Made by a program: the position numbers and the translations under genes. Below, piece after piece: positions 23,562-35,964 of a DNA stretch of 40,347 nucleotides. This DNA comes from Bacteroidota bacterium (GTDB lineage Bacteria > Bacteroidota > Bacteroidia > Bacteroidales > JACABE01). Within the stretch, counting starts at the first letter, position 1. Each line of letters opens with the position of its first letter. Under the pieces are notes generated by a model, which did not search any database, was not told the origin of the DNA, and saw only the letters and a list, made by a program, of their open reading frames with translations. The stretch is from the NCBI GenBank assembly GCA_013377005.1, contig JACABE010000034.1:1-40347 (forward strand), in the 5' to 3' direction.

Positions 23562-26500
23562 TTAATGCAATAAAGTTACACTTCCATGTAATTGTCGCAT
23601 TCCTTTGTTTTTTCCTTTATTTTCGTATTCAATAAGATAATAATAGACTCCATCTGAACAAAGTTTTCCATAATATAAACCATCCCAAAATGCAGATTTA
23701 CAGAAACCTTCATAAAGTTGATTTCCCCAACGATTATATATATAAAGGGTAATTTTGTCAATATTAGTATAAACTGGAGCAAAGAACTCATTTATTCCAT
23801 CACCATTGGGAGTAAAAATATTAGGAACCGATATTTCAGAACCACATTCATCAATAAAAATAGTATCACTTGAGGAACATAATCCATCAAAAACAATTAC
23901 TGAATAAAAACCTGGATTGCTAACATTCAAATGACTTAAGACAGAACCATCTGACCACAAATACTGACTAAAACCTAAACCAGGCGTAAGAATAATTAAG
24001 TCGCCTGGGCACATAATAGTATCATTTCCTATTGAAATTATTGTTTTTGGAATAGCAATTACATGTATAGTATCCGAACCATAACAATTGTTATTATTAA
24101 CCTGTACCCAATAATCTCCTGCACTTTGAATACTTATAGTTTGAGTATTTAATCCTGTGCTCCATTGGTAATGACTACCGGTATTTCCTGCATTTAATAA
24201 CAATCCATCGCCCTGACAAATTGAAGTATCATTACCAAGATTGACAATAAGATTAGTAATAGAATTAACAATTATTGTATCTCTTGCATAACATCCATTA
24301 CTATTTGTAACTTTTACCCAGTAGATTCCTGAATTAGTAACATTAATCTGCTGATTTGTTGCACTCGTGCTCCAAAGATATGATGCTCCTAAATTTCCTG
24401 CATTCAACATTAAAGAATTTCCCTGACAAATCGTGGTATCATTCCCAAGCATAACAACAGGCAAAGAATCTATATTTACAACTATTGTATCTTTTCCAAT
24501 ACATACATTACTATTCGTAACTTTTACCCAATAAGTCCCCGAAGATGTTACATTTAAAGTTTGTGTTGTTACACCAGTATTCCATAAATAATTACATCCT
24601 GAATTTCCTGCATTTAATAATATCTGATTGCCTTGGCAAATTGTTGTATCATTCCCAAGCGTAACAATAGGCAAAGGAACTGTATTAACAACTATTGTAT
24701 CTTTCCCAATACAACCAATACTATTCGTAGCTTTTACCCAATAAGTCCCCGAAGATATTATATTTAAAGTTTGTGTTGTTGAGCCGGTACTCCATAAATA
24801 ACTACATCCTGAATTTCCAGCATTTAATAATATCTGATTGCCTTGGCAAATTGTAGTATCATTCCCAAGGGTAACAACAGGCATAGGAACTGTATTTACA
24901 ACTATAGTATCTTTCCCAACACATCCATTGCTATTTGTAACTTTTACCCAATAAGTCCCCGATGATATTACATTTAAAGATTGAGTTGTTACGCCGGTAT
25001 TCCATAAATAAGTACATCCTAAATTTCCTGCATTTAATATTATCTGATTACCTTGGCAAATTGTGGTATCAATCCCAAGGTTAACTAATGGTACAGGAAA
25101 AACGCTTATTTTTACAGAATCAATAGCTGAGCAGCTACTATTTGTTACCGTAAAATAATAATTTGTTGTTTGAGATGGAGTAACTGTTATGCTTTGAGTA
25201 CTATCACCTGTTGACCAATGATAAGATAATGAAGTTCCTCCTATTGTATAAAGTTGCAGGACTTCAATGGCTGATAATGTTCTGTTATAAATAAAAATAT
25301 CATCTATTTTCCCTTTAAAAAAATTACCATCATAATTATTATCGTATAATCTACCAAAATAAGTAGTATTATGATAACCTACATTGCTTCCAGTATAGTT
25401 ATAAGTCCCTGCGATAACTCCATTAATATAAATCTCGGAATATGCTGAATGCATCACCCAAACAATATGTTTCCATTGATTTTCCAAGTTTAGATTGTTT
25501 AAAGCCTGTGGAGGATTGGTTCCACTCCAATTAGTAGCCAATGCAAGTTGTGCACCGTTCTTGTCAGCTCTTATTCCAACTGTACTGTCTGTCATACTCA
25601 TATAAAAATCATTTCCCCATGCACTATTCATATCACAAAGGATATTAGAATGGTTATGTCCATTCGTATGATATACCCAAGCTGAAATTGTTAAAGATGT
25701 CATATCAGATAATGGTGCTCTACTTATATAATCATTGATACCATCAAAACTGTAAGCACTATTGTTATTTCCAAATCTATCAGTTGTTAATGTTGCACCA
25801 TTCACAATTCCATTATTTGCATTTCCACTTTCATCATTTGCATTTCCACAAAACGGATAAAGTGCATATAATCCTTGTTGTAGATTCAATGGCAATTGTG
25901 ATTTAGTACATACATTTTGAGAACTAGCAGTACCTGAAAGAACTACACTTTGTCCTTTACAAATTGTAGTATCATTGCCAAGGTTACCAACAGGTACAGG
26001 AACTGTATTTACCACTATTGTATCTCTTGCATAACATCCATTACTATTTGTAATTTTAACCCAATAAGTTCCAGAATTAGTAACATTAATCTGCTGTGAT
26101 GCTGCACCTGTGCTCCAAAGATAGGATGCTCCTACATTACCTGCATTTAATGTTAAAGAATTTCCCTGACAAATTGTTGTATCGTTTCCAAGATTAACAA
26201 TAGGTATAGGAACTGTATTAACAACTATTGTGTCTTTACCTATACATCCACTACTATTCGTAACTTTTACAGAATAAGTCCCCGAAGACGTTACATTAAT
26301 AGTTTGAGTTGTTTGTCCTGTATTCCATAAATATGTGCATCCAGTATAAAAAGCATTTAATTGGACATTGGTTCCTTGACAAATTGATGTATCATTTCCT
26401 AAAAAAGCAGCAATAGGATTAATAATCGAAATTGTTTGAGTAGTTGTATCTGTACAATTATTATTTGTAGTGACAATCAGTTGAACATTATAATTTCCAT

Positions 26501-27236
26501 AATTTGTATATGAATGAGTTGGATTCTGCAAATTAGAAGTAGTACCATCACCAAAATTCCACAACCAACTACTAATAGTCAAAGGGTTAGTAATATTAAC
26601 AAGTGAACCAAAAAAATCAACAGAGCTGTTAATACAATTTTGAGTATAAGTAAAATTTACGATAGGAGGTATTTTAATACCCCAAGTTAAGTTTGTGTAA
26701 TCTTCTGGTGTAGAGGAAAAAACTGTAACACAACTTAATGTTCCTGGAAATTCAAGGATACAATATCCTTCAGTTCCAATTAAACTTGTAGAATTAACAA
26801 ATGTATTACCACCACCATTGAACAGAACCGTATAAGGAGATGAAAAACTTAAAGATACAGAAGTTGAGGAATTTCCAATTGATGCCAATAATAATACAGG
26901 GTTTTGTACAGGAGCGGAAAAACACATTGTAGTTGTTCCACCAGAACCTGCAGCCCAAGTCGTTTTAGGTACGGTTGTATTTGGTGGATTATCAGAAAAT
27001 CCACTAAAATAATTAAAATAAAAAATACTTGGTGTAAACGAAAAATTATAGTTTGCAGTCATTAACATATTAATTGTTTGCCCATTGGAAGTTAGTATAG
27101 CTGTTGCAGTATCTGTTGTTCCCTGATCTGTCCAAACACCCCATGCATAATTACCACATGATGATCTTGAATTAGGTTGAGAAAATAATATACTATAAAA
27201 ACACAAAGAAATTAAAATAGTAATGAATGATTTCAT
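23562..27236 (-). CDS. large repeat adhesin-like protein with PKD, nested LamG and T9SS type B domain
   Basis: This 1224-residue surface protein has a signal peptide (1-19), a 150-residue N-terminal domain of unknown type, and a PKD domain (191-272; WNFGDGTTSNLQNPTHSY). About nine Ig-like repeats of 70 residues then start with LGNDTTICQG and carry YLWSTG (279-1128). A LamG domain (about 449-664) is nested within repeat 3. The T9SS type B/CHU_C tail (1136-1224; VPNIFTPNGDGINEFF) ends the protein. It is probably secreted and anchored or released at the cell surface, perhaps for adhesion or gliding. It lies inside the glycan region but on the opposite strand. Confidence 0.92.
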   Translation of the reverse strand: MKSFITILISLCFYSILFSQPNSRSSCGNYAWGVWTDQGTTDTATAILTSNGQTINMLMTANYNFSFTPSIFYFNYFSGFSDNPPNTTVPKTTWAAGSGGTTTMCFSAPVQNPVLLLASIGNSSTSVSLSFSSPYTVLFNGGGNTFVNSTSLIGTEGYCILEFPGTLSCVTVFSSTPEDYTNLTWGIKIPPIVNFTYTQNCINSSVDFFGSLVNITNPLTISSWLWNFGDGTTSNLQNPTHSYTNYGNYNVQLIVTTNNNCTDTTTQTISIINPIAAFLGNDTSICQGTNVQLNAFYTGCTYLWNTGQTTQTINVTSSGTYSVKVTNSSGCIGKDTIVVNTVPIPIVNLGNDTTICQGNSLTLNAGNVGASYLWSTGAASQQINVTNSGTYWVKITNSNGCYARDTIVVNTVPVPVGNLGNDTTICKGQSVVLSGTASSQNVCTKSQLPLNLQQGLYALYPFCGNANDESGNANNGIVNGATLTTDRFGNNNSAYSFDGINDYISRAPLSDMTSLTISAWVYHTNGHNHSNILCDMNSAWGNDFYMSMTDSTVGIRADKNGAQLALATNWSGTNPPQALNNLNLENQWKHIVWVMHSAYSEIYINGVIAGTYNYTGSNVGYHNTTYFGRLYDNNYDGNFFKGKIDDIFIYNRTLSAIEVLQLYTIGGTSLSYHWSTGDSTQSITVTPSQTTNYYFTVTNSSCSAIDSVKISVFPVPLVNLGIDTTICQGNQIILNAGNLGCTYLWNTGVTTQSLNVISSGTYWVKVTNSNGCVGKDTIVVNTVPMPVVTLGNDTTICQGNQILLNAGNSGCSYLWSTGSTTQTLNIISSGTYWVKATNSIGCIGKDTIVVNTVPLPIVTLGNDTTICQGNQILLNAGNSGCNYLWNTGVTTQTLNVTSSGTYWVKVTNSNVCIGKDTIVVNIDSLPVVMLGNDTTICQGNSLMLNAGNLGASYLWSTSATNQQINVTNSGIYWVKVTNSNGCYARDTIIVNSITNLIVNLGNDTSICQGDGLLLNAGNTGSHYQWSTGLNTQTISIQSAGDYWVQVNNNNCYGSDTIHVIAIPKTIISIGNDTIMCPGDLIILTPGLGFSQYLWSDGSVLSHLNVSNPGFYSVIVFDGLCSSSDTIFIDECGSEISVPNIFTPNGDGINEFFAPVYTNIDKITLYIYNRWGNQLYEGFCKSAFWDGLYYGKLCSDGVYYYLIEYENKGKNKGMRQLHGSVTLLH
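23853..26402 (-). repeat. tandem 210-bp coding repeats, interrupted by LamG segment
   Basis: The coding sequence contains nine units of about 70 codons. Units 1-2 span 25986-26402, unit 3 is split by the LamG insert (25245-25892), and units 4-9 span 23853-25082. Units at 24453-24872 are nearly identical at the base level, suggesting recent duplication. The frame is kept throughout. Confidence 0.85.
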
Positions 27237-30522: not shown

Positions 30523-31923
30523 CTATAAATTAAAAGTTTCTCTTAAACTTGGAATCACTATTTGCTTAAATCCATGTTTTTGAAGATGACTGCTATAATT
30601 TTCCTGTACCTTAAGTTCTCCATGTACTAAGAAAATGGTTTTTACTTTCTTCGTATTTTGACAACTCAAAAACCTTGTCATTTCCTCATAGTCACCGTGT
30701 GCCGAATATGATTCTAAATGTTCTATGTCAGCTTTAACTGCATAATGATGTCCGAAAATAGAAACCATTTTATCACCTCTGCTGATTCTGGCACCTAAAG
30801 TAGTCGGAGCACAATAACCAACTACTAAAATTGTTGTTTTGGGGTTTTCAATATTATTGGCCAGATGGTGTTTTACCCTTCCGGCTTCCATCATTCCTGA
30901 TGCTGAAATAATAATACAGGGTTTGCGATTGGTATTGAGTGATTTTGACTGATCAACGCTCTGAATATAATGCAAATGCTTAAACCCGAATGGATCTGCA
31001 TCTGTTTTCATAAATTCAAGTATTTCATTGTTAAAACATTCGGGATGCATCCGCATGATATTGGTTGCATCAGTTGATAGCGGACTGTCAACATATACAT
31101 TTACATCCGGTAATAATCCTTTTGATTTTAATCTGTCAAATGCATATACAATTTCCTGTGTTCTGCCAATACTGAACGAAGGAATAATGAGTTTACCTTT
31201 TTTCTTGGTGCAGGTATCAATAACAACTTTTAAAAGCTTATTTTCTGCATCTTCCAGATTTTCGTGCAAACGGTCACCGTAAGTAGATTCTGTGATAATA
31301 TAATCAGCTTGTGGAAAAGCTTCCGGTTCTTTTAAAATACGCTTACGATAACGACCGATATCACCTGTATAGCATATTCTTGTTGACTTTTCACCTTCTT
31401 TTATTGTTAGGTTAACAGCAGAACTGCCTAATATATGACCTGTATCTGTAAATACAACAGAAATATCAGTTGTAATAAAATACTCTTTGTGAAAAGGTAC
31501 ACTCACAAAATATTGCATAGATGCATGTGCATCTTCTAATGTAAAAATAGGTAGGAGCGGAGGTAAATTGTGGGAAGCTCTTTTTTTATTATTAATATAA
31601 GTATCGTATTCTTGTATTCTACCTGAATCAGCAAGCATTATTGAACATAAATCTCTGGTTGCAGGTGTAGATATTATTGTTCCGTTGAATCCTTTGGTAT
31701 GAATATAAGGAATTAATCCTGAATGGTCGATATGTGCGTGTGAAAGTACTAAATAATCAATTTCATTTGGCTCGAAACCTAAATCTCTGTTCATAGAATC
31801 TGTTTCCATTCCTTTACCTTGATACATACCGCAATCCAACAATATTTTAATTCCTTTATCGGTAGTAATTAAATGTTTGCTGCCTGTAACTTCCTGTGCT
31901 GCTCCTAAAAATTGAATCTGCAT
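30523..31923 (-). CDS. metallo-beta-lactamase/beta-CASP RNA-processing exonuclease-like protein
   Basis: This 466-residue protein has an MBL-fold core with HAHIDH at residues 62-67, the TGDIGRYRK strand and the ESTYGDRLHE motif. A beta-CASP insert (FSIGRTQEIVYAF) follows, and the C-terminal RMMBL block carries YSAHGDYEEM and LVHGE. This is the CPSF73/YSH1-like bacterial group, expected to cut or trim RNA with two zinc ions in the cytoplasm. Its substrate in bacteria is unclear. It is the last gene of the minus-strand operon starting at 33954, 41 bases after the M48 gene, so it may also have its own signals. Confidence 0.92.
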   Translation of the reverse strand: MQIQFLGAAQEVTGSKHLITTDKGIKILLDCGMYQGKGMETDSMNRDLGFEPNEIDYLVLSHAHIDHSGLIPYIHTKGFNGTIISTPATRDLCSIMLADSGRIQEYDTYINNKKRASHNLPPLLPIFTLEDAHASMQYFVSVPFHKEYFITTDISVVFTDTGHILGSSAVNLTIKEGEKSTRICYTGDIGRYRKRILKEPEAFPQADYIITESTYGDRLHENLEDAENKLLKVVIDTCTKKKGKLIIPSFSIGRTQEIVYAFDRLKSKGLLPDVNVYVDSPLSTDATNIMRMHPECFNNEILEFMKTDADPFGFKHLHYIQSVDQSKSLNTNRKPCIIISASGMMEAGRVKHHLANNIENPKTTILVVGYCAPTTLGARISRGDKMVSIFGHHYAVKADIEHLESYSAHGDYEEMTRFLSCQNTKKVKTIFLVHGELKVQENYSSHLQKHGFKQIVIPSLRETFNL

Positions 31924-31964: not shown

Positions 31965-32768
31965 TTATTCTGTCTGTTTAATCTGTTCTTTTAATGAATT
32001 CCATTGTTTACCTGACAATAAACTATCCTTTAATATTTCTTTGTTTTTAATATATTCAATAATTTTTAATGAACGTTCTTCCGAATCAGGATGTGTACTT
32101 ATCCAGAATACCTGTTTTGGTAGATTTTTTTCATTTTTTGCCAATCTGAAAAGAAAATTGGCAAAAGGTTCAGGATCAATATTAGCTTTAATTAAATAAT
32201 CCGCTGCAGTTAAATCAGCTTCACTTTCTAAATTTCGGTCATAAGCATTAGAAGATAACAACTTCAATGTTCTCTTTGCCACTTCACCATTACCGCTTCC
32301 TGTTGTCATTGAAACAAGAACGGCTAAACCTACTTCCTTACCCAGTTTTTTCATCACATGCTGCTTTTCCATGTGAGCTATTTCGTGACATAAAACACCA
32401 GACATTTCTGCTTCATTTTCACATTCTTCAATAAGACCTGAATATATAATCAGATGATTGTTAGGTAGTGCAAAAGCATTGATGTCATCCTTTTTTAAAA
32501 TATGTAATTTAATTTTTTTTCTGTCAATATTATTTGCCTGACAGATATGATTCAGTACAATATCAACTTTATAAACAATACTGTCTGAATTGTTTTCATT
32601 TTCAGTTTTTTGTATTATATCCCAGTACAAATCGCCTAGTTTTTCTTCAGTTTTTTTAGTGATTTGTTCTATTTTAAAAAATTTCATCCAATCTACCTGA
32701 TACAATGCAAACCAGCAGGCATAAAATAAAATCAAAATTGTCAGAAACTGTAATATTATCTTTTTCAT
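31965..32768 (-). CDS. M48-family membrane-anchored metallopeptidase
   Basis: The 267-residue protein has one N-terminal membrane segment (residues 4-24) and an M48 zinc peptidase domain. LCHEIAHMEKQH holds His128, Glu129 and His132, and the third ligand is Glu in RNLESEADLTAADYL. The later WISTHPDSEERS is the usual M48 C-terminal block. Such YcaL/LoiP/BepA-like proteases do quality control of envelope proteins. There is no lipobox. Its start overlaps the DUF4870-like gene by four bases. Confidence 0.9.
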   Translation of the reverse strand: MKKIILQFLTILILFYACWFALYQVDWMKFFKIEQITKKTEEKLGDLYWDIIQKTENENNSDSIVYKVDIVLNHICQANNIDRKKIKLHILKKDDINAFALPNNHLIIYSGLIEECENEAEMSGVLCHEIAHMEKQHVMKKLGKEVGLAVLVSMTTGSGNGEVAKRTLKLLSSNAYDRNLESEADLTAADYLIKANIDPEPFANFLFRLAKNEKNLPKQVFWISTHPDSEERSLKIIEYIKNKEILKDSLLSGKQWNSLKEQIKQTE

Positions 32769-33199
32769 CTTGGTTTACAGATTAAGGTTGTTAAATCACC
32801 ATAAAACCACCATTCTATATGTATTCCTTTTCTGGTTTTTATTGCAGTATAAATCGTAGCAATAAATTCTACAATATTAAAAATTAAAATGGTAATAATA
32901 TAAGAAATATATTTCCGTGTAATAACTTCATCGCTAAAAATAATGGAAATAGTCCACCAGAAACCTACACTGTTCATCATTAATACTGTAAATTGCGAAA
33001 GTAAAGCCTGTGTGCAATGCCATCTTACAAAAAATGTATCTTTTCTGTTACCTAGATAAAAAATTATAGTAGCTATAAGATTAATAATAGGAAAGGGGAG
33101 ACCTGCAATAAATGCAAGCAATGACATCAAATAGCTGTTAGAAGCTTTTTCAGCTTCATGTTCACCGGGTATATATGAAAATTCCTGCGTTGTAATCAT
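32765..33199 (-). CDS. DUF4870-like small membrane protein
   Basis: This 144-residue protein has about three hydrophobic segments (residues about 23-48, 68-88 and 96-118) and the RWHCTQALLSQF segment, which resembles the WHxxQAL motif of DUF4870/Tic20-like proteins. Function is unknown. It overlaps both the upstream DUF2752-like gene and the downstream M48 gene by four bases (ATGA-type junctions), indicating tight translational coupling in this operon. Confidence 0.75.
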   Translation of the reverse strand: MITTQEFSYIPGEHEAEKASNSYLMSLLAFIAGLPFPIINLIATIIFYLGNRKDTFFVRWHCTQALLSQFTVLMMNSVGFWWTISIIFSDEVITRKYISYIITILIFNIVEFIATIYTAIKTRKGIHIEWWFYGDLTTLICKPR

Positions 33200-33609
33200 A
33201 ATTCTTTATATATATTCCAAATCCAGTTTGCTAAAATAAGCAAAATAGCAGATATTACTACCCATTTTTTTCTTAAAAAAAACTCTGTTCTGTTGTAAAA
33301 AATCAAAAGTGATGATTTTTTTATTATTACATCAAATAGTATCCAGAAAGGAGAGATCAGCATTATTGCAATAAGTATTATACCTATCGGATTCCAGTAC
33401 AATGATGCCAGAATATCGCCGTTTAAAAAAGACAGAACAGCTCTTGTAGAGCCGCATGAAGGGCAGGGTATATTTGTTATAGTTTTAATGATACAAATTC
33501 CGTATTTTGGAGTTGCTGAAATACGGTTATTATACAAAGTTATTGCAAGCCAAATATACCCTGCGGTGCAAGCCAATAATAATATTGAAAATAACTTGCC
33601 CCTGTTCAT
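33196..33609 (-). CDS. DUF2752 membrane protein
   Basis: This 137-residue protein has three hydrophobic segments and the family hallmark IPCPSCGSTRAVLSFLNGD (residues about 48-66), with a CxxC pair that could bind metal or form a disulfide, followed by NPIGIILIAIMLI. DUF2752 proteins have no known function; they often sit beside TM2 and DUF4870 genes in Bacteroidota. The gene starts 9 bases after the TM2 gene and overlaps the DUF4870-like gene by four. Confidence 0.88.
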   Translation of the reverse strand: MNRGKLFSILLLACTAGYIWLAITLYNNRISATPKYGICIIKTITNIPCPSCGSTRAVLSFLNGDILASLYWNPIGIILIAIMLISPFWILFDVIIKKSSLLIFYNRTEFFLRKKWVVISAILLILANWIWNIYKEL

Positions 33610-33618
33610 CTTATTCTA

Positions 33619-33954
33619 TTATAAATACATTTGTAGTTTTAATATGTTTTTTTCTCTGGTTGCACCCATAATCATAAACCAATCAATAATAGCCCAGATG
33701 CCTAAACCACCACAGGTTAATAGTTTTCCTACGCCCATGCCGGTATCACCAATCATAAATCTGTCAATACCAAGACTACCTGCTAATAATGAAACAATTA
33801 AACTAGTTGTTGGATCTTTAAATTGTAGTGTTTGAATTACAACCCATTTTGAATCATCCAATTGTAATAAACGATCTCTGATTTGAGCTACATGGTGACT
33901 TTCAAAAAACTTGCCATTAGCCATAATAAACATGTCTACTTTTTGTGCTTCCAT
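33619..33954 (-). CDS. TM2-domain protein
   Basis: This 111-residue protein has a 45-residue N-terminal region and a TM2 domain: two hydrophobic segments joined by the GSLGIDRFMIGDTGMGVGK turn, whose DRF and G residues are the family signature, ending in WAIIDWFMIMGATREKN. The family is linked to membranes but its biochemical role is unknown. It is the first gene of a five-gene operon. Its leader is the second copy of the repeated 62-base element, ending 22 bases before its ATG. Confidence 0.88.
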   Translation of the reverse strand: MEAQKVDMFIMANGKFFESHHVAQIRDRLLQLDDSKWVVIQTLQFKDPTTSLIVSLLAGSLGIDRFMIGDTGMGVGKLLTCGGLGIWAIIDWFMIMGATREKNILKLQMYL

Positions 33955-33976
33955 TTTTGTACGTTTTTAATTTAGT

Positions 33977-34038
33977 CCTACTCTTAAGGCTTTTCGGTAT
34001 CGCCCCGTTTTTTTTAGTGGTGGCTGGTTTCCACTATT
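33977..34038 (-). promoter_or_regulatory. repeated structured 5' leader element, copy 2
   Basis: Read on the minus strand this segment starts AATAGTGG, forms an AGTGG/CCACT stem (34035-34031 with 34020-34016), has an A-rich linker, and ends with CGGGGCGATACCGAAAAGCC plus GAGTAGG. It aligns base for base with 1145-1206 (about 50/62). It begins 13 bases after TATTTTTA (34059-34052), a near match to the -7 box, and ends 22 bases before the TM2 start codon. This is the same layout as copy 1. Confidence 0.65.
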
Positions 34039-34073
34039 ATATTTTATGTATTAAAAATAATCTTATTTTGTTA

Positions 34074-35267
34074 TTATTCTCCTTTTACAAATTTTTCTTT
34101 GGTATCAACCGGTATAATGGTTGAACGTTGAATATTACTATCTTCTTTAAATAATTTTCTGTATGTGATATGCTTTTTGGCATATTTTGCGCCTACAGAT
34201 TCATGCAATGCTCTCATTTTTGGATTAAAGTCACCAACCCATGAGAGTTCTAATTCTGTGTACCAAGGTTTGGTTTTCATAACCTGATCCAGATGCCAGA
34301 AAATACCCGATTCTATACCTGATTTCTGAGCATTGGGTACAACACCCATTATGGTAATACGAGCACGTGTAATGGTATGCATTTTTTTAAAATACAAAAA
34401 CTTAAGCTTACTCCAAAGGTTCAATTTTCCATCTAAATGCTTGAGTATTTGATTTACATCAGGGAACATAATTAAAAATGCGATGGGTTGTCCATCCTGA
34501 TAGGCAAACCAAATAAATTCCTCATCAATAACATCCTTGGCATTGAGCATGGTGCGTTTGAGCATATCTTTATTAATAGGTGTAAAGTTTTCATGGAACT
34601 GCCAAGCGGTGTCATACACAGTTTTAAAATCATCAATAAAACGATCTGATTCATTAAAATTGATATGTTCAAATTTATAGATAGGTTTCTGACGTATCCA
34701 ATCGGCTATTTTCCAAAATCTTTCAGGAAAAGGTTGTGTAAGGTCAAGGTGATTGGTTACTTGTTCAAAATAAAATTTAAAGCCGTATTCTTCGAAAAAA
34801 TGCTGATAATAAGGAGGATTGTATTGCATTCCGATACCTGGGTGTGTAAAACCTTCTACTAATAAACCCCAATAATTATCATTTTCTCCAAAATTAATAG
34901 GACCATCCATGGCTTCCATACCTCTGGTTACTAACCACTTTTGACATGCATCAAAAAGCATATTAGCAGCTTCTTTGTTATTGATACATTCAAAAAAGCC
35001 CATACCGCCCGTAGGCTGTACATAATTATATGCCTTGTTTTTATTTATAAATGCAGCTACTCTTCCTATTAACTCTCCTTTATTATCTTTTAAAACCCAT
35101 CGGATGGCTTCACCATTTTTAAAAAACACATTGGTATCGGGTGAGAAGATATTTTCAATTTCTGTTTCTAACTGGCATACCCAATTTTTATCGTTTTTAT
35201 AAACTATTTTAGGAACAAGATGAAAATCTTTAACATCCTGTTTGTTTTTAACTTCAATTATTTGCAT
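34074..35267 (-). CDS. putative GNAT-like acyltransferase, Bacteroidota-conserved
   Basis: This 397-residue protein looks like a family of predicted N-acetyltransferases widespread in Bacteroidota. An N-terminal domain contains KGELIGRVAAFINKNKA, followed by the GMEAMDGPINFGENDNYWGLLVEGF block. A C-terminal GNAT-like half has QPIAFLIMFPDVN and ARITIMGVVPNAQKSGIESGIFWHL, the latter like an acetyl-CoA binding V/A region. Substrate and pathway are unknown. It is probably cytoplasmic. It ends 36 bases before the leader of the TM2 operon, so it is likely a separate unit. Confidence 0.75.
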   Translation of the reverse strand: MQIIEVKNKQDVKDFHLVPKIVYKNDKNWVCQLETEIENIFSPDTNVFFKNGEAIRWVLKDNKGELIGRVAAFINKNKAYNYVQPTGGMGFFECINNKEAANMLFDACQKWLVTRGMEAMDGPINFGENDNYWGLLVEGFTHPGIGMQYNPPYYQHFFEEYGFKFYFEQVTNHLDLTQPFPERFWKIADWIRQKPIYKFEHINFNESDRFIDDFKTVYDTAWQFHENFTPINKDMLKRTMLNAKDVIDEEFIWFAYQDGQPIAFLIMFPDVNQILKHLDGKLNLWSKLKFLYFKKMHTITRARITIMGVVPNAQKSGIESGIFWHLDQVMKTKPWYTELELSWVGDFNPKMRALHESVGAKYAKKHITYRKLFKEDSNIQRSTIIPVDTKEKFVKGE

Positions 35268-35502: not shown

Positions 35503-35964
35503 TTAATGAGTAAATAAGTATGAAATAAGGAAGATAAATCCTGCAAATACATATATCGAAAGAACAATAATCATCATGATTCCCATAAATTTAAAATGCG
35601 ATTTCAGGTTTTTAAAGGCTGTTGCCATATCTTCATTATCCTTTTGTTTAATAGCTTGCTTGCAAGAGACTGAAAATTTATACAGATAAATGACGGGAAA
35701 TATATAAATAACAGCCATTACGATGTATATAATACCAATCATAACTGATGGAAAGTTAGAATTAGAATACGGGTATCCCAAGTTGGAAAATAAAGTACTT
35801 GCAAAAATGCCAGCTGCTACCATCAGACCGATTCCGATAAAACCAATAATAGAGAAAAAACTGCTCCATTTTCTTATCTCATTCAAATAAGAAATGGCTT
35901 CTGTTGTTAATTCAATGTTTTCTGTTTTTAATGCATTGTCCTGCATAAGATTTTCTGTTTCCAT
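35503..35964 (-). CDS. DUF5362-like membrane protein
   Basis: The 153-residue protein has a soluble N-terminus (1-33), then three or four hydrophobic segments (about 35-58, 72-98 and 128-150), with the ISYLNEIRKWSSFFSIIGFIGIGLM-type start typical of DUF5362 proteins. No catalytic residues are apparent; its role is unknown. It is a single gene just downstream of the decayed restriction-modification frames. Confidence 0.72.
   Translation of the reverse strand: METENLMQDNALKTENIELTTEAISYLNEIRKWSSFFSIIGFIGIGLMVAAGIFASTLFSNLGYPYSNSNFPSVMIGIIYIVMAVIYIFPVIYLYKFSVSCKQAIKQKDNEDMATAFKNLKSHFKFMGIMMIIVLSIYVFAGFIFLISYLFTH

What the first reader, a model, noticed from the sequence alone, without database searches (positions are those of the whole stretch)
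33977..34038. Second leader copy ties a five-gene membrane-quality operon to the same control
The second copy lies before the TM2 gene that opens the TM2-DUF2752-DUF4870-M48-MBL operon. If the leader senses a signal, the same signal would govern a secreted LamG protein and a set of small membrane proteins with a membrane protease. This suggests an envelope-related input.
Basis: inference. Interest (0 to 1): 0.6.

Follow-up and report, generated by a model that had tools for sequence, protein, structure and literature searches.

The report
DUF805 RNA leader before TM2 gene
The repeated leader is a known but unexplained bacterial RNA structure that sits right before start codons; in this genome it precedes exported or membrane proteins, but in some related bacteria it mostly precedes cytoplasmic-looking ones.

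Summary
The second leader copy is real (33971-34039, minus strand). Both window copies match Rfam RF03081, "DUF805 RNA" (78.4 and 72.2 bits, cut-off 51.1). The genome holds 13 copies, all over the cut-off. Covariation over 144 leaders supports two hairpins, each with a loop pseudoknot that the Rfam match line does not show. The start codon follows 17-22 nt after the leader core in 138 of 196 copies, with no promoter motif at a fixed distance. I read it as a translation-level control module for the next gene; its signal is unknown.

The envelope idea is partly right. By a simple rule 13 of 13 leader genes here look exported or membrane-bound, against 157 of 325 background ORFs (p = 1e-4). But in two related families 25 of 28 look cytosolic (at least one is a missed TM2 protein), so the input is not strictly envelope-related.

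The leader does not clearly open the operon: an acetyltransferase-like gene ends 39 nt before its first hairpin. Of nine genomes with the TM2-DUF2752 pair, five show no leader. GGDEF and CsrA are unlikely general partners.

The parts
33971..34039 (-). DUF805 RNA leader, copy 2 (Rfam RF03081)
   Evidence: 78.4 bits, cut-off 51.1; 80% identical to copy 1
34017..34034 (-). hairpin P1: arms 34031-34034 and 34017-34020 (GUGG/CCAC)
   Evidence: 97.2% of cells paired, changes on both sides in all 4 pairs
34005..34027 (-). pseudoknot PK1: P1 loop bases 34027, 34026, 34024 with 34005-34007
   Evidence: 98.1% of cells paired; two of the three pairs have both-side changes; counts on the wider set
33988..34004 (-). 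hairpin P2: arms 34002-34004 and 33988-33990 (GGC/GCC)
   Evidence: 99.5% of cells paired
33977..33997 (-). pseudoknot PK2: P2 loop bases 33996-33997 with 33977-33978 (GG of GAGUAGGA)
   Evidence: 98.3% of cells paired; inner pair CG 124, TA 26, TG 26 of 179; outer pair nearly invariant
33955..33975 (-). 21-nt spacer between leader core and ATG
33619..33954 (-). TM2-domain protein, first gene after the leader
   Evidence: PF05154, E 3.3e-16
33196..33609 (-). DUF2752 protein
   Evidence: PF10825; follows TM2 in eight other genomes
32765..33199 (-). DUF4870 protein
   Evidence: PF09685; found in six of those eight
31965..32768 (-). M48 peptidase
   Evidence: PF01435; found in six of those eight
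30523..31923 (-). beta-CASP/RMMBL metallo-hydrolase; in line here, not seen after M48 in L142 and L164
   Evidence: PF10996, PF07521; no tblastn hit at E 1e-5
34074..35267 (-). acetyltransferase-like gene ending just upstream of the leader
   Evidence: PF00583 weak, E 2.7e-4; same order in sister genome G296, L073/L221
1138..1207 (-). DUF805 RNA leader, copy 1
   Evidence: 72.2 bits
135..1124 (-). LamG protein with signal-like N-terminus and C-terminal sorting domain
   Evidence: PF13385, PF18962

Best explanation
The leader is a DUF805 RNA: a roughly 60-nt RNA module of two hairpins, each closed into an H-type pseudoknot, ending about 20 nt before the start codon. It most likely controls translation initiation of the one gene that follows it. 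The 3' pseudoknot (PK2) ends at the edge of the little-structured zone around start codons in Bacteroidota, which mostly lack Shine-Dalgarno sites, so a change in its folding or in what binds it would change ribosome access. In this genome 13 copies on 8 contigs mark a dispersed set of exported and membrane proteins that could answer one signal. Shown: the family, the copies, the covarying structure, the near-fixed spacing and the downstream genes. Inferred: the translational mechanism and the shared signal. Unknown: the signal, and whether it is a small molecule or a protein.
For: Rfam match of both copies. Thirteen genomic copies. 198 distinct copies collected; of 196 with an ORF, 138 have the ATG 17-22 nt after the core and 178 at 14-27 nt. 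Tandem pseudoknot: 98.2% of 1711 cells paired against a shuffled mean of 94.6; 59 cells changed on both sides against 9.3 shuffled and at most 27 when slid. One PK1 pair changes from C-G to U-A between the two window copies themselves. No promoter motif at fixed distance. Of 113 leaders whose nearest upstream ORF is co-directional, 18 lie within 50 nt of its stop codon; two successive genes each carry a leader in L015, L016 and L018. Spacers are richer in A at -3, -6, -12 and -13 than background (173 against 267 starts), positions tied to efficient initiation in Flavobacterium johnsoniae (PMC6847099; abstract and passages seen).
Against: No expression, probing or binding data. I did not test for alternative folds or for terminators. 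A short upstream gap does not exclude a promoter inside the upstream gene. The shuffles do not correct for relatedness. The outer PK2 pair hardly varies (171 of 179 paired; 897 of 5000 shuffles reach it). The GUAGGA strand is not a conserved Shine-Dalgarno site: it reads GUAAGA in 27 of 179 (the base at that position) and lies mostly 18-23 nt from the ATG, so plain SD sequestration is unlikely. Near-fixed spacing also fits a constitutive enhancer.
Confidence: 0.6

Rival explanations
1. A protein operator: an RNA-binding protein recognises the pseudoknots and represses or activates translation.
For: Many scattered copies with varied genes and one near-invariant core suit a protein-read regulon; with the ATG mostly 14-27 nt away there is little room for a separate expression platform.
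Against: CsrA has no match in 39 of 44 leader-bearing genomes, including this one, so CsrA is not the general partner. No other RNA-binding protein was tested. The long conserved loops also suit a small-molecule site.
Confidence: 0.25
2. A constitutive translation enhancer or mRNA stabiliser for well-made proteins, with no sensing.
For: Near-fixed distance to ATG; spacers with the A pattern of well-translated genes.
Against: Conservation of two pseudoknots with long conserved loops is more than an enhancer seems to need. The background start calls are noisier than the leader starts, which weakens the spacer contrast. No ribosomal protein or chaperone family is among the families shown for the downstream genes (25 commonest of each call only).
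Confidence: 0.2
3. One reading: a sensor with an envelope-specific input.
For: 13 of 13 envelope-type genes here; 53 of 64 in named genomes against 156 of 318 neighbours.
Against: 25 of 28 leader genes in families f5 and f6 look cytosolic by the rule, at least one of them wrongly.
Confidence: 0.3
4. A c-di-GMP sensor of the general kind that controls surface genes.
For: Many copies per genome and surface-biased cargo, as recalled for c-di-GMP riboswitches (recall, not tested); this genome does have one GGDEF match.
Against: 27 of 44 leader-bearing genomes have no GGDEF match at E 1e-3.
Confidence: 0.03

Closest known systems
Rfam RF03081 DUF805 RNA (clan CL00115)
   Same: Sequence, two hairpins, position upstream of ORFs; scores well above the cut-off.
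   Different: The Rfam match line shows no pseudoknots (such models cannot hold them, recalled); here two are supported by covariation. The original description (Weinberg et al. 2017, recalled) was not held, so the pseudoknots may already be drawn there.
preQ1-I riboswitch and other compact H-type pseudoknot riboswitches
   Same: Hairpin, loop pseudoknot and A-rich strand in a very short leader near the start codon (general layout, recalled).
   Different: The preQ1 model scores 16.2 bits against a cut-off of 39; no queuosine gene is among the downstream families shown; here two pseudoknots are in tandem.
c-di-GMP riboswitch regulons
   Same: Many copies per genome and surface-related cargo (recalled).
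   Different: 27 of 44 leader genomes have no GGDEF match; no c-di-GMP riboswitch model is among the six matches at 33940-34080 up to E 10.

Membership tests
Rfam RF03081 DUF805 RNA | covariance-model score at or above the gathering cut-off | tested here: met
   78.4 and 72.2 bits against 51.1
Rfam RF03081 DUF805 RNA | both consensus hairpins | tested here: met
   alignments; pair counts
Rfam RF03081 DUF805 RNA | lies directly upstream of a coding gene | tested here: met
   TM2 ATG 21 nt after the core; 190 of 196 copies within 40 nt
Rfam RF03081 DUF805 RNA | downstream DUF805 gene (the namesake) | tested here: inconclusive
   Not at this site; DUF805 Pfam in 11 of 186 leader genes, one of them at one of the 13 own copies
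riboswitch (general) | binds a small ligand directly | not testable with these tools
   no binding data
riboswitch (general) | ligand-dependent expression platform | not tested
   position suggests translational control; no alternative fold tested
preQ1-I riboswitch | Rfam model score over cut-off | tested here: not met
   16.2 bits against 39
c-di-GMP-responsive regulator | hosts make c-di-GMP (GGDEF) | tested here: not met
   no GGDEF match in 27 of 44 leader genomes; this genome has one match

The most novel reading that the evidence does not exclude
DUF805 RNAs are tandem-pseudoknot translation switches that read one cellular signal and, gene by gene and perhaps also inside operons, set the initiation rate of a dispersed regulon of 13 or more genes in ribosome systems that hardly use Shine-Dalgarno sites. 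The regulon has been rewired between lineages from envelope proteins to cytosolic proteins, and seems to have been carried with a PixA-type gene into Methylovulum.
Probability: 0.35. Interest if true: 0.7.

Novelty: new member of a known kind. Interest (0 to 1): 0.45.

Why it matters
I found no known function for DUF805 RNA: of 5.39 million papers searched, 8 hold 'DUF805', none with a title about the RNA, and none holds 'RF03081' (listings only, and the 2017 description is outside the library). This work gives a testable pairing scheme, shows that the RNA is placed for control at the start codon, and lists the genes it precedes in one genome. It also suggests that an envelope-only signal is too narrow, which should guide the search for the ligand or partner.

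Tried and rejected
A pairing of CGG (just before P2) with CCG in the P2 loop looked attractive by eye, but covariation did not support it: 1202, 1051 and 2605 of 5000 shuffles reached the observed counts for its three pairs. SD sequestration was rejected as the main idea, because the GUAGGA strand reads GUAAGA in 27 of 179 and lies mostly 18-23 nt from the ATG. A fixed upstream promoter was looked for and not found: TAnnTTTG occurred 35 times in 188 upstream regions against a mean of 13.7 in single-base shuffles, but at scattered positions. The CsrA and GGDEF links were tested by co-occurrence and rejected as general partners. A first alignment mixed strands and was dropped. A guessed accession for a sister family was wrong and told nothing.

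Rows dropped before counts. In one search, 49 of the 247 hits were rows of alignment A2 and were removed, leaving 198 copies, 196 with an ORF; 186 of these had the ATG within 60 nt and at least 50 codons, and were used for the gene tallies. Of the 190 distinct elements, the MI analysis used 179, and one search used 144: the first 150 by fewest mismatches, less 6 that were truncated or had unusual length or P1 spacing. This last choice favours the structure; one search gives the wider set. The named-genome loci came from an exact consensus pattern, so they lean to standard leaders. The matches below the Rfam cut-off were fetched only in part.

Limits of the location test. Exported or membrane calls are simple hydropathy rules, not SignalP; the rule calls the TM2 protein of L164 cytosolic, although it is 79% identical to the window's TM2 protein. 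A laxer rule gave 13 of 13 against 171 of 325 (p = 3e-4) here, and 54 of 64 against 173 of 318 (p = 3e-6) in named genomes. The background of 325 ORFs includes the window itself and so its two leader genes. The f5/f6 split was noticed after looking at the data. The 186 proteins fall into 117 clusters, so counts are not all independent.

Full report
What is there. The leader reported at 33977-34038 is on the minus strand and is 80% identical over 69 nt to the copy at 1145-1213. Both match one Rfam family, RF03081 "DUF805 RNA", a cis-regulatory family: 78.4 bits at 33971-34039 and 72.2 bits at 1138-1207, with a cut-off of 51.1. So the element is a known kind of RNA, not a chance repeat. That DUF805 RNA comes from Weinberg and colleagues (2017) is recalled; the paper was not held.

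How many. The genome (3.69 Mb, 92 contigs) has 13 copies on 8 contigs, all over the cut-off. In 296 genomes of the phylum, this one included, 58 have a match at E 1e-3 and 44 are over the cut-off (stricter filters). Of 40 relatives, this one included, 20 have a match and 16 are over the cut-off. One relative (G311) has 17 matches at E 1e-3, not all over the cut-off. A consensus pattern found 61 stretches in named genomes.

Structure. From 198 distinct copies, mutual information over 179 of 190 distinct elements pointed to pairs beyond the two Rfam hairpins. Counting a named structure on 144 leaders gave 98.2% of 1711 cells paired (shuffled 94.6), 8 of 12 pairs with changes on both sides (shuffled 2.8) and 59 such cells (shuffled 9.3); sliding the partners gave at most 49.7% paired and 27 such cells. 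PK1 joins the P1 loop to the bases just before P2; PK2 joins the P2 loop to the GG of GAGUAGGA. On the wider set of 179, two PK1 pairs are formed in 164 of 177 and 168 of 179, and the inner PK2 pair in 176 of 179 with C-G, U-A and U-G forms; none of 5000 shuffles reached these three. The third PK1 pair (167 of 179; 3 of 5000 shuffles) rests on few changes. The outer PK2 pair is nearly invariant and gives little evidence (171 of 179; 897 of 5000 shuffles reach it). RNAalifold gave only the two hairpins. The two window copies differ by a matched change in PK1 (U in the loop of copy 1 with A in its partner). The shuffles do not correct for relatedness, so the counts are not probabilities.

Position. 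The start codon lies 17-22 nt after the leader core in 138 of 196 copies and at 14-27 nt in 178. Upstream there is no motif at a fixed distance. The nearest upstream ORF is co-directional in 113 of 191, divergent in 20, and not found within 500 nt or before a contig edge in 58; in 18 of the 113 the gap is 50 nt or less, in 9 it is 30 or less. In L015, L016 and L018 two successive genes each carry their own leader. This points to control at the start codon, gene by gene (inference). The spacer is rich in A at -3 (0.72 against 0.51 in background), -6 (0.64/0.49), -12 (0.77/0.58) and -13 (0.70/0.54). These are positions linked to efficient initiation in F. johnsoniae, where the zone from -20 to +20 is also little structured (PMC6847099; abstract and passages). 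Background start sites were called crudely, so the contrast may be overstated.

The operon. TM2, DUF2752, DUF4870, M48 and a beta-CASP metallo-hydrolase follow in line. The hydrolase family is a soluble type (family knowledge). TM2 homologues with DUF2752 next to them occur in eight further genomes, six of them with DUF4870 and M48 hits too; the other two loci gave none. Rfam finds the leader before TM2 in G296, G218 and G016 as well as here. In G351, G319, G336, G331 and G327 no leader was found by Rfam or by a loose pattern. So the leader is present in four of nine; but G218 and G016 came in through the leader search, so this fraction is too high. In the TM2 search alone, two of seven full-length homologues (this genome and G296) have it, and an eighth, partial match (G315) does not. 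L029 is a shorter TM2 gene with a leader that showed no DUF2752 neighbour. The acetyltransferase-like gene ends 39 nt before the first hairpin here and 16 nt in G296, so the leader may lie inside a longer operon. No transcript data decide this.

Which genes. In this genome the 13 genes are: the LamG protein, three related exported proteins (L015, L016, L018), two copies of another exported protein (L016, L018), five further proteins with signal-like N-termini, a DUF805 membrane protein (L017) and the TM2 protein. By a simple rule 13 of 13 are exported or membrane, against 157 of 325 ORFs in about 440 kb of the same genome (p = 1e-4); exported alone 10 of 13 against 98 of 325 (p = 9e-4). A laxer rule gave 13 of 13 against 171 of 325 (p = 3e-4). 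In named genomes 53 of 64 leader genes are envelope-type, against 156 of 318 neighbouring ORFs (p = 3e-7), and this holds for lengths of 80-250 aa (p = 2e-6). Pfam tallies over 186 leader genes: DUF805 11, Por secretion tail 10, two OMP barrel families 8 each (overlapping), PixA 7, TM2 6, aquaporin (MIP) 5, SCO4226-like 5, DUF1842 4 (only the 25 commonest families of each call were shown).

The limit of the envelope idea. Of 28 leader genes from families f5 and f6, 25 look cytosolic by the rule, among them PixA, DUF1842 and SCO4226-like proteins; one of the 25 (L164) is a TM2 protein that the rule missed. Of the other 158, 129 look exported or membrane and 29 cytosolic. The same RNA therefore serves different kinds of protein in different lineages. 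A signal tied only to the envelope is too narrow; a broader growth or stress state fits better (inference).

Partners tested. Of 44 leader-bearing genomes over the cut-off, 27 have no GGDEF match and 39 no CsrA match at E 1e-3; this genome has a GGDEF match and no CsrA match. This speaks against c-di-GMP and CsrA as the general input.

Verdict. The kind is known; the tandem pseudoknots and the lineage switch of cargo are the parts I have not seen described, with the caveat that the original description could not be read.

Noticed in passing
L101 and L122 (Methylovulum MAG contigs): DUF805 RNA leader before a PixA-type gene, 20-21 nt from ATG, among genes that look gammaproteobacterial by eye; suggests transfer of leader plus gene across phyla, or mis-binning.
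   Followed up: partly
L228, 1749-1781 +: One predicted viral contig (IMG/VR) carries the leader core before an exported-looking protein that by eye resembles the leader gene of L077; I saw no clear virion gene among the ORFs of 90 aa or more in the 10.3 of 17.3 kb held.
   Followed up: partly
L021 1232-1320; L172 around 819: Some leaders carry an extra insertion, possibly an added hairpin, between the first hairpin and the core.
   Followed up: no
L068, 936-1325: A distant relative (28% identity) of the window's DUF5362 gene (35503-35964) lies after a leader-like match below the cut-off in another genome, G328.
   Followed up: no
window 23562-27236 -: A 1224-aa ORF contains repeats of 210 nt period, 63-82% identical to the reference copy.
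   Followed up: no
L045, L049, L050, L140, L159: A leader variant with a shortened P1 loop (GGAGCAG) goes with ACGAGG instead of ACGGGG before P2, in family f6 genomes; L047 and L162 have the short loop without ACGAGG.
   Followed up: partly
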